A DNA stretch of 64,000 nucleotides from Sediminibacterium sp. TEGAF015 (GTDB lineage Bacteria > Bacteroidota > Bacteroidia > Chitinophagales > Chitinophagaceae). The stretch is from NCBI RefSeq assembly GCF_025997995.1, contig NZ_AP026683.1, forward strand, positions 2,604,501 to 2,668,500, read 5' to 3'. Both the position numbers and the translations under genes were made by a program. Below are positions 31,184 through 33,856 of this stretch, in pieces. Position 1 is the first letter of the stretch, and each line of letters opens with the position of its first letter. Below the pieces are notes generated by a model. It was not told the DNA's origin, did not search any database, and worked only from the letters and a program-made list of their open reading frames with translations.

Positions 31184-31981
31184 ATGAGCCATTTAAAAGG
31201 ATTTCAAAAGAAGGCAGGTTTAGGGGTAATGGTTGTTATTACCAATGTTGTTATGTTGTTGGGTAGCCAATTGGCTGCACAAACAAAAGATAGCTCACTA
31301 TATTTTAAAGCTGCATTGAGTGCTACCCAAAATGGATTTTCAATTATTCCTTCTTTTTCCTTAGGCAAACCTGCAATCATTTTGGAGCCTTCCATTGGTA
31401 ACAAGCGAATGAGTTTTGAACCTCAATTTCGTTTTGCTATGACAGGGAAACCCTGGTCATTTATTTTTATATACCGCTATAAAATTATCGATAGAAAAAA
31501 GTTTTCTATGCAGTTAGGCGGACATATTCCAGCCATCAATTTTAATACCCAGACAGCTACCATCAATGGGGTTCCTGAAGAGATCATGGAATCCAAGCGC
31601 TTTTTAGCTGCAGAACTTATTACCAATCATGTGATTGCCGATCATGTTAGCATGGGCTTGTACCTTTTGCGAGGACATGGGTACAATAATACCGGAATTA
31701 AGGACTCATATTATGCTGGTTTTAGAATCACATTTTCTCAATTAAATATTTCTAAACAACTGTATGTGCAGTTGAACCCACAACTCTATTACTTAAGAAT
31801 TGATGATAAGGATGGGGTGTTTTTAACCAACACACTGAACCTTCGTGTTCATAATTTCCCCTTTTCTTTTGCTAGTATCTTCAACAAAGCAATTCGATCA
31901 ACCATTGTGGGCAAGCAATTCGATTGGAACCTAAGCCTGGTCTATTCTTTTCATCAGTCGTATCATAAATTGGCTAAATAG
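31184..31981 (+). CDS. Predicted outer-membrane beta-barrel protein, function unknown
   Basis: This 265-residue protein has an N-terminal signal (about residues 10-33, ending QLAAQ), followed by alternating polar/aromatic strands typical of a small barrel (SFEPQFRFAMTGKPWSFIFIYRY, split by turns) and no known catalytic motif. I do not recognise the family. It is transcribed away from pheT and stands alone before the dnaB intergenic region. Apart from the barrel-like pattern and secretion signal no role can be assigned. Confidence 0.7.
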   Translation: MSHLKGFQKKAGLGVMVVITNVVMLLGSQLAAQTKDSSLYFKAALSATQNGFSIIPSFSLGKPAIILEPSIGNKRMSFEPQFRFAMTGKPWSFIFIYRYKIIDRKKFSMQLGGHIPAINFNTQTATINGVPEEIMESKRFLAAELITNHVIADHVSMGLYLLRGHGYNNTGIKDSYYAGFRITFSQLNISKQLYVQLNPQLYYLRIDDKDGVFLTNTLNLRVHNFPFSFASIFNKAIRSTIVGKQFDWNLSLVYSFHQSYHKLAK

Positions 31982-32102
31982 TCGCTTATTACACAATCCT
32001 CTATTAAGTCATTCTGGACAAATTGCCCCCCTTTTTTCCATTTTTCTTTGTTAACGTGGTTCTGTTAATTTCTTCAAATAATAGAGGAAAACTTTTGCAA
32101 AT

Positions 32103-32177
32103 GGGGGATAAGCATAGTAATTTGTGTGAATAGGGGATGTTTGTTTGTGGATAAGCGGGGAATTAGCTGTGGAATAA
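32103..32177 (+). promoter_or_regulatory. Phased DnaA-box-like cluster (candidate oriC or dnaB control region)
   Basis: TGTGGATAA at 32146-32154 is an exact DnaA box (TTATCCACA on the other strand). TGTGAATAG at 32125 matches 8 of 9 of the relaxed consensus. GGGGGATAA at 32103 and TGTGGAATAA at 32168 are weaker. All four point the same way and start 22, 21 and 22 bases apart, about two helical turns. A/T-rich DNA follows. Gene direction flips from minus to plus here. Confidence 0.5.
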
Positions 32178-32217: not shown

Positions 32218-32225
32218 TATATTCG
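32218..32225 (+). promoter_or_regulatory. Possible -7 element for dnaB
   Basis: TATATTCG has one mismatch to TAnnTTTG and lies 75 bases before the dnaB ATG, downstream of the DnaA-box cluster. Similar TTCG variants precede rsgA (54399-54406) and pheT (31029-31036, minus). Confidence 0.3.
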
Positions 32226-32299
32226 CTCCCCCTTGTTGCCAGTTAACATTTTGGTAACAATGCAAAAAGGATCGTTCTAAAATTGATTAAGCAAAGAAA

Positions 32300-33856
32300 A
32301 TGGAGATTACCAGTTTAAATAAAGACAGAAAAAGAAGAAAACCCGCGATAGATTTAAGTACGATGGTATACGGTAAAGTGCCCCCTCAGGCCAAAGAGCT
32401 GGAGGAGGCAATACTAGGTGCCTTGATGTTGGAGAAGAGTGCTTTTGACACTGTATCAGAAATCATTAAACCAGAATGTTTTTACGTAGATGCGCACCAA
32501 TATATTTTTCTGGCGATGCAAAGTCTGCAACAGAAATCTGTTCCGATAGATATTTTAACTGTTGTTGAAGAATTGAAAATGCAGGGTAAATTGGATCTGG
32601 TTGGTGGGCCTTATTATGTTACCAAACTAACCAATTCGGTTGTATCTACTGCGAATATTGATGCTCATGCCCGTATTGTTTTGCAGAAGTTCATCCAGAG
32701 AGAATTGATTAAAATTAGCGGAGAAATCATTGGGGATGCTTATGAAGAAGGAACCGATGTTTTTGATTTACTGGATGAATCAGAAACCAAAATGTTCAAT
32801 ATTACCAACAACTATTTGAAGAAGAACTTTGAAGACATTGGAGGTGTATTGATAGAAGCGATTACTCGAATTGATGAACTAAGAACCAAGACCGATGAAA
32901 TTTCTGGTGTGCCTAGTGGCTTTTCATCACTCGATAAAATTACGTATGGCTGGCAGCCAACCGATTTGATTATTCTGGCTGCACGTCCTTCTGTGGGTAA
33001 AACAGCTTTCGCGCTTAACCTTGCTCGTAATGCAGCTTTGCATCCGACGAAACCGGTTGGAGTAGGTTTTTTCTCTCTGGAAATGAGTGCCGCACAGTTG
33101 GTTCAGCGTATCCTGAGTGCCGAAAGTGAAATCAGAATGGAGAAAATTAGCCGGGGAAAACTGGAAGATCATGAATACCAGCAATTACATAGTAAGGGGA
33201 TTAAAAAACTGGAAAATGCACCGTTATATATTGACGATACGGCAGCACTGAATATTTTTGAATTCCGTGCAAAAGCCCGTAGAATGGTTAACAAACATAA
33301 CGTGGGTATCATCATCATTGACTACCTGCAGTTAATGAGTGGAAGCAACGATAAAGGGGGAAACAGAGAACAAGAAATCAGTAGCATCTCCCGTAACTTA
33401 AAGTCACTGGCAAAAGAATTGAAAGTTCCCATCATTGCCCTGAGCCAGTTGAGTCGTGCGGTTGAAACCCGTAAAGAAAGTAAAATGCCTCAGTTGAGTG
33501 ACCTTCGTGAATCGGGTGCCATTGAACAGGATGCGGATATGGTAATGTTTATTTATCGTCCGGAGTACTATGAAAATATGACCAATGAAATGGGGGAAGC
33601 AACCAATGGTGAAACCCATATACGTATTGCCAAGCATAGAAATGGTTCACTCGAAACCATTAAGTTAAGAGCAAAATTGGAAATACAAAGATTTGAAGAA
33701 ATGGACGCGGAACCAGGTCCCGGAAACTGGAAACCTATTCAACCCGGATCAATGAGTCAGGGCAATGGGGAGACTGCTTTCTTTATACAAAAAGGAAGTA
33801 AGATGAACCAGTCTTCTGATTTTGATGAAGGCTTTGATGAGGGCGCACCATTTTAA
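32300..33856 (+). CDS. dnaB: Replicative DNA helicase
   Basis: This 518-residue protein has an N-terminal DnaB domain (PQAKELEEAILGALMLEKSAF, about 31-140), then a RecA-like C-terminal domain with Walker A ARPSVGKTAFALN from about residue 228, Walker B VGIIIIDYLQLM, and the GAIEQDADMVMFIYRPEYY motif. No intein is present. The C-terminal tail (about 455-518) is low-complexity. It leads a plus-strand run of closely spaced genes through 40.7 kb. The region upstream carries DnaA-like boxes. Confidence 0.97.
   Translation: MEITSLNKDRKRRKPAIDLSTMVYGKVPPQAKELEEAILGALMLEKSAFDTVSEIIKPECFYVDAHQYIFLAMQSLQQKSVPIDILTVVEELKMQGKLDLVGGPYYVTKLTNSVVSTANIDAHARIVLQKFIQRELIKISGEIIGDAYEEGTDVFDLLDESETKMFNITNNYLKKNFEDIGGVLIEAITRIDELRTKTDEISGVPSGFSSLDKITYGWQPTDLIILAARPSVGKTAFALNLARNAALHPTKPVGVGFFSLEMSAAQLVQRILSAESEIRMEKISRGKLEDHEYQQLHSKGIKKLENAPLYIDDTAALNIFEFRAKARRMVNKHNVGIIIIDYLQLMSGSNDKGGNREQEISSISRNLKSLAKELKVPIIALSQLSRAVETRKESKMPQLSDLRESGAIEQDADMVMFIYRPEYYENMTNEMGEATNGETHIRIAKHRNGSLETIKLRAKLEIQRFEEMDAEPGPGNWKPIQPGSMSQGNGETAFFIQKGSKMNQSSDFDEGFDEGAPF

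What the first reader, a model, noticed from the sequence alone, without database searches (positions are those of the whole stretch)
32103..32177. Phased DnaA-box-like array before dnaB at a switch in gene direction
Seen: an exact TGTGGATAA plus three degenerate copies in the same orientation, with starts 22, 21 and 22 bases apart (two helical turns), followed by A/T-rich DNA. Genes from 5.6 to 31.0 kb run mainly leftward and genes from 31.2 to 40.7 kb all run rightward, as on either side of an origin. Known: DnaA boxes are 9-mers of this type, and origins often lie in such gaps. Inference: oriC, or a DnaA-regulated dnaB promoter. Against: only one perfect box, and direction becomes mixed after 40.7 kb.
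Basis: partly seen in the sequence, partly recalled or inferred. Interest (0 to 1): 0.66.

Follow-up and report, generated by a model that had tools for sequence, protein, structure and literature searches.

The report
Phased DnaA-box array at dnaB promoter
Upstream of the gene for the replicative DNA helicase lies a row of binding-site motifs for the replication initiator DnaA, all facing one way, one or two helical turns apart and at a fixed distance from the promoter across a bacterial family; it is not the replication origin but most likely a switch that ties helicase production to initiator activity.

Summary
The array is real: four same-strand DnaA-box-like 9-mers at 32103, 32125, 32146 and 32168 (steps 22, 21, 22), directly upstream of dnaB. 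It is not oriC. The chromosome is closed (3.06 Mb) and its GC-skew minimum lies near 2.28 Mb. About 15 kb from that minimum, the peptidylprolyl-isomerase/nadA gap carries many DnaA boxes plus a conserved box/TAATAGTAGTAG (DnaA-trio) module; the array is 342 kb away and lacks conserved trios. A second closed genome of the genus gives the same picture. Across 81 Chitinophagaceae dnaB upstreams the boxes face one way and recur at 11, 21-22, 32, 43 and 54 bp. Where a -7 promoter element could be placed (58 genomes) they sit at fixed distances from it. Chains of three or more boxes occur in 49/79 dnaB upstreams but 13/2331 other windows; in this genome the triple-box pattern occurs only here. Best reading: DnaA, probably as a cooperative oligomer on one helix face, regulates dnaB transcription, more likely activating it. 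DnaA control of dnaB is known in Caulobacter, and DnaA binding there in Mycobacterium; the phased, promoter-registered array appears to be an undescribed variant. Binding and sign of regulation are inferred.

The parts
32103..32111 (+). DnaA-box-like 9-mer 1, GGGGGATAA (2 mismatches); in several relatives of the genus the same place reads GGTGGATAA or AGTGGATAA
   Evidence: starts -115 from the -7 element
32125..32133 (+). DnaA-box-like 9-mer 2, TGTGAATAG (2 mismatches)
   Evidence: starts -93 from the -7 element
32146..32154 (+). DnaA box 3, TGTGGATAA (exact)
   Evidence: starts -72 from the -7 element
32168..32176 (+). DnaA-box-like 9-mer 4, TGTGGAATA (2 mismatches)
   Evidence: starts -50 from the -7 element
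32063..32071 (+). upstream box-like TGTTAATTT, right arm of an inverted pair (left arm about 32047-32055) seen in many relatives as TGCACA..TGTGNA
   Evidence: -155 from the -7 element, a peak in the position histogram
32088..32097 (+). AAAACTTTTG block just upstream of box 1, nearly invariant in the genus; role unknown
32218..32225 (+). probable -7 promoter element TATATTCG (Bacteroidota-type TAnnTTTG variant) of dnaB
   Evidence: sequence; invariant ATATTCGC in the genus alignment; consensus from PMC6847099; no start site has been mapped
32242..32259 (+). two TAAC repeats 11 bp apart in the dnaB leader, GTTAACATTTTGGTAACA; role unknown
32300..33856 (+). dnaB, replicative DNA helicase, the gene controlled
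   Evidence: TIGR00665 518 bits

Best explanation
The array is a DnaA-binding control region of the dnaB promoter. DnaA binds the same-facing boxes, spaced one or two helical turns apart, so that all subunits lie on one face of the DNA and form a head-to-tail oligomer whose promoter-side end is held at a fixed distance from the -7 element (the array spans roughly -127 to -54 from the predicted start of transcription). One strong box stands among degenerate ones, so occupancy should be cooperative and depend on ATP-DnaA. This would couple synthesis of the helicase to the state of the initiator that loads it. Because no box in this window overlaps the core promoter, activation is more likely than repression (about 60:40). 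Shown here: sequence, spacing, orientation, conservation, promoter register, and a better oriC elsewhere. Inferred: binding by DnaA, ATP dependence, effect on transcription and its sign.
For: Box consensus at the aligned positions is TGTGnATAA, the DnaA box, and the same motif crowds the trio-bearing oriC candidate. The genome's DnaA has a canonical GGRDHTTV domain IV signature (TIGR00362). In 81 dnaB upstreams pair spacing peaks at 11, 21-22, 32, 43, 54 bp on the dnaB strand; 20-23 bp pairs 181 against shuffle mean 11, maximum 18. Box positions keep a 10.5-bp grid relative to the -7 element in 58 genomes, R=0.58, and in 43 non-redundant ones, R=0.56. Chains of three or more boxes in 49/79 dnaB upstreams against 13/2331 other windows. 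Triple pattern once per genome, at dnaB, in this genome and six others of the genus. 11-bp steps match the 2-3 bp gap preferred by E. coli DnaA (PMC11317965) and the 2-bp optimum in T. maritima (PMC10316083). Precedent: DnaA-dependent dnaB in Caulobacter (PMC8203912); DnaA binding upstream of dnaB in M. tuberculosis, where a mutant that binds less there under-expresses dnaB (PMC7738170).
Against: No binding or expression data. Only one perfect box in this genome. The -7 element was located by consensus and could be placed in 58 of 81 regions. Genomes are related, so counts are not independent. In some other families of the order the phased boxes face the other way, and outside the order the array fades, so it is not a general requirement for dnaB expression.
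Confidence: 0.74

Rival explanations
1. The array is the chromosomal origin oriC, or a second origin.
For: Box cluster beside A/T-rich DNA, a local switch in gene direction and a local rise in skew at 32 kb.
Against: GC-skew minimum near 2.28 Mb in this genome and 0.945-1.11 Mb in G010, both beside nadA and not dnaB. The nadA gap has box plus DnaA-trio repeats in all ten genomes of the genus read; dnaB upstreams have scattered trio-like repeats in only 4 of 80. Box positions are tied to a promoter.
Confidence: 0.04
2. The boxes bind DnaA mainly to titrate it or change its nucleotide state (datA- or DARS-like), with little effect on dnaB transcription.
For: A clustered set of DnaA boxes away from oriC is what such sites look like; titration does not need a promoter.
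Against: The cluster follows the dnaB gene in many genomes and keeps a fixed distance to its -7 element; titration would not require that.
Confidence: 0.09
3. Another DNA-binding protein, not DnaA, uses these TGTGnATAA-like direct repeats to regulate dnaB.
For: Binding was not tested. Conserved neighbours (AAAACTTTTG, inverted TGCACA..TGTGNA, 11-bp TAAC repeats) show that other factors may act here.
Against: The motif equals the DnaA box and that of the oriC candidate; 11-bp same-orientation steps are the DnaA geometry; DnaA is known at dnaB in other phyla. CRP-type sites are palindromic with the half-sites facing the other way.
Confidence: 0.11
4. Chance similarity in A/T-rich DNA.
For: One perfect box only; degenerate boxes are common (242 in the window).
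Against: Spacing, orientation and promoter register are conserved in dozens of genomes while spacers change.
Confidence: 0.02

Closest known systems
DnaA-dependent dnaB transcription in Caulobacter crescentus (Hottes 2005, as cited in PMC8203912) and DnaA binding upstream of dnaB in M. tuberculosis (PMC7738170)
   Same: DnaA boxes or DnaA binding upstream of the replicative helicase gene; in both cases lower DnaA activity goes with changed dnaB expression
   Different: No long phased array in fixed register with the promoter is described in the passages read; different phyla and promoter type
E. coli double DnaA boxes at DnaA-regulated promoters (PMC11317965)
   Same: Paired same-motif boxes about one helical turn apart, cooperative DnaA binding outside oriC
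   Different: Two boxes 2-3 bp apart there; here four to six boxes mostly two turns apart; E. coli dnaB is not among the DnaA-bound genes in the list read
Unidirectional DnaA-box clusters of oriC (E. coli left DOR, H. pylori oriC2, T. maritima oriC; PMC10316083)
   Same: Directional box array, strong box plus weak ones, helical spacing
   Different: No conserved DnaA-trios or unwinding module, far from the skew minimum, tied to a promoter
datA / DARS clusters of E. coli
   Same: Several DnaA boxes outside oriC
   Different: Those act on DnaA supply or nucleotide state (own knowledge and PMC11317965); this one follows the dnaB promoter with a fixed distance

Membership tests
Bacterial oriC (DnaA boxes plus basal unwinding system) | Lies at the GC-skew minimum | tested here: not met
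   Minimum near 2.28 Mb, array at 2.637 Mb; in G010 minimum 0.945-1.11 Mb, dnaB at 1.415 Mb
Bacterial oriC (DnaA boxes plus basal unwinding system) | Conserved DnaA-trios next to a DnaA box | tested here: not met
   4 of 80 dnaB upstreams with scattered trio-like repeats; present in 12 of 12 nadA upstreams read
Bacterial oriC (DnaA boxes plus basal unwinding system) | Autonomous initiation / read-depth peak | not testable with these tools
   No sequencing reads and no experiment available
DnaA-regulated promoter | DnaA boxes upstream of a promoter, conserved in relatives | tested here: met
DnaA-regulated promoter | Box spacing and orientation compatible with cooperative DnaA binding | tested here: met
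   11 and 21-22 bp same-strand steps against the known 2-3 bp gaps
DnaA-regulated promoter | DnaA binds in vitro or in vivo | not testable with these tools
   Needs EMSA, footprint or ChIP-seq
DnaA-regulated promoter | Transcription of the gene responds to DnaA | not testable with these tools
   Needs reporter assays or DnaA depletion
datA / DARS | Changes the ATP/ADP state or free amount of DnaA | not testable with these tools
   Needs biochemistry; no architecture test made

The most novel reading that the evidence does not exclude
Chitinophagaceae carry one dedicated promoter, dnaB's, on which DnaA polymerises as a long one-faced oligomer that abuts RNA polymerase, so that helicase supply reads out the ATP-DnaA level: a double-stranded-DNA DnaA filament used as a transcription switch rather than for opening the origin.
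Probability: 0.35. Interest if true: 0.7.

Novelty: new variant of a known kind. Interest (0 to 1): 0.52.

Why it matters
What decides whether DnaA activates or represses a promoter is named as an open question in the review of its transcriptional activity (PMC8203912). Here evolution has kept box spacing, orientation and promoter distance over dozens of genomes, which gives a clean, testable architecture: insert 5 or 10 bp and measure. It also gives a specific hypothesis for how these Bacteroidota match helicase supply to initiation, and it places the likely oriC of this genus elsewhere, with a recognisable unwinding module.

Tried and rejected
A first array pattern could not match the array itself because box 4 reads TGTGGAATA; it was replaced by TGTGNA x3. 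oriC at dnaB was rejected by skew and trios. The contig start beside dnaA was considered as an origin and dropped: the skew is positive on both sides of it, not at its minimum. The mraZ/queA pair of exact boxes (2,988,437 and 2,988,527) was considered as oriC and dropped: it is about 700 kb from the skew minimum. dnaA upstreams show at most one conserved box and no phased array (read by eye). A sigma-70 promoter scan gave only chance-level hits, as expected for Bacteroidota promoters. A literature search for Bacteroidota, DnaA boxes and replication origin returned no paper.

Full report
What was checked. Box-like 9-mers as such are not enriched in the window (242 against 251 expected), but the regular same-strand chain is unique in 812 kb of sampled genome, and a TGTGNA triple at 20-23 bp occurs once in the whole genome. 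The gene-direction switch is as described and the downstream gene is DnaB.

Where the origin is. The window is 2,604,501-2,668,500 of a closed 3,055,665 bp chromosome; named relatives place it in or near Sediminibacterium, Chitinophagaceae. Sampled GC skew is mostly negative from about 0.86 to 2.28 Mb (near zero at 0.66 and 2.12 Mb) and mostly positive after that, so the cumulative minimum is near 2.28 Mb. Next to it lie mnmG and, at 2,294,098-2,294,577, an A/T-rich gap between a divergent peptidylprolyl isomerase gene and nadA. The gap holds many TGTGNATAA/TGTTAATAA boxes and TATACACATGCC-TAATAGTAGTAG followed by A/T-rich DNA, which is the box-spacer-trio order of the basal unwinding system (PMC8287927). 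Trio repeats stand upstream of nadA in all ten genomes of the genus read, and shorter trio-like ones in the two other genomes read. In the closed genome G010 the sampled skew minimum (0.945-1.11 Mb) is again beside nadA (0.949 Mb), with dnaB at 1.415 Mb. The dnaB array is 342 kb from this oriC candidate and has no conserved trios. It is therefore very unlikely to be the origin.

What the array is. In 81 dnaB upstream regions (80 named loci plus the window) boxes are enriched on the dnaB strand only (624 against 305 in shuffles; the other strand has 272), and pair distances peak at 11, 21-22, 32, 43 and 54 bp, multiples of one helical turn. Measured from the -7 element, box starts gather at about -156, -115, -94, -73, -61 and -50, with minor peaks between them on the same 10.5 bp grid; this holds in 43 genomes that are under 60% alike in the region (R=0.56). 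In a genus-level alignment much of the boxes and the promoter is invariant while most of the spacer sequence changes. Chains of three or more boxes occur in 49 of 79 dnaB upstreams and in 13 of 2331 other windows of the same loci. Within the genus the triple pattern is found at dnaB in this genome and six others and elsewhere in one; dnaA upstreams have at most one conserved box. In other families of the order phased boxes are present at dnaB in several cases, some facing the other way; in 40 families elsewhere in the class there is only a weak excess at 11 and 22 bp and one weak chain of three. The full array is thus a feature of Chitinophagaceae and some relatives.

How it probably works. 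The motif is the DnaA box, the genome's DnaA has a canonical GGRDHTTV signature, and 11-bp steps are the preferred DnaA-DnaA geometry in E. coli and T. maritima (PMC11317965; PMC10316083). Boxes two turns apart, with occasional boxes between, suggest a one-faced DnaA oligomer whose promoter end is held at a fixed distance from RNA polymerase. With the -7 element at 32218-32225 and a start 4-5 nt after it (PMC6847099), the array spans about -127 to -54, a place typical of activators. This step, the ATP dependence and the sign are inference. In part of the family (loci labelled Ferruginibacter and similar) boxes also occur at about -28 from the -7 element, which would allow repression there.

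What is known. dnaB belongs to the DnaA regulon of Caulobacter (PMC8203912). M. tuberculosis DnaA binds upstream of dnaB, and a DnaA mutant that binds less there expresses less dnaB (PMC7738170), which favours activation. I found no paper on such an array in Bacteroidota, but the library lacks most subscription journals. The finding is filed as a new variant of a known kind.

Limits. Relatedness of the genomes means the counts are not independent tests. The -7 elements were found by consensus, not by mapped transcripts. Skew was sampled, not complete. No binding or expression data were available.

Noticed in passing
G000 2,294,098-2,294,577 (L060:14098-14577), outside the window: Likely true oriC of the genus: gap between a peptidylprolyl isomerase gene and nadA, near mnmG, with many DnaA boxes and a box/TAATAGTAGTAG DnaA-trio module, next to the GC-skew minimum.
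   Followed up: partly
window 32242-32259; [quoted passage not shown] a similar GGTTAACAATTTCTTAATC stands in dnaA leaders of part of the genus. Unexplained; possibly a second shared regulator.
   Followed up: partly
window 32047-32071 and 32088-32097: Inverted box-like pair (TGCACA..TGTGNA in many relatives) at about -170/-156 from the -7 element, and an almost invariant AAAACTTTTG block just before box 1. Role unknown.
   Followed up: no
G000 2,988,437 and 2,988,527 (L040:2438-2536), outside the window: Two exact, inverted TGTGGATAA boxes 90 bp apart in the queA/mraZ gap at the head of the cell-division cluster; possible DnaA link to division genes.
   Followed up: no
L095, L103, L104 (other families of the order): Phased 21-bp box arrays upstream of dnaB that face away from dnaB.
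   Followed up: no
window 31184-31981: 265-aa ORF with no NCBIfam match sits between pheT and dnaB in this genome, whereas the start of pheT directly faces dnaB in several relatives.
   Followed up: no
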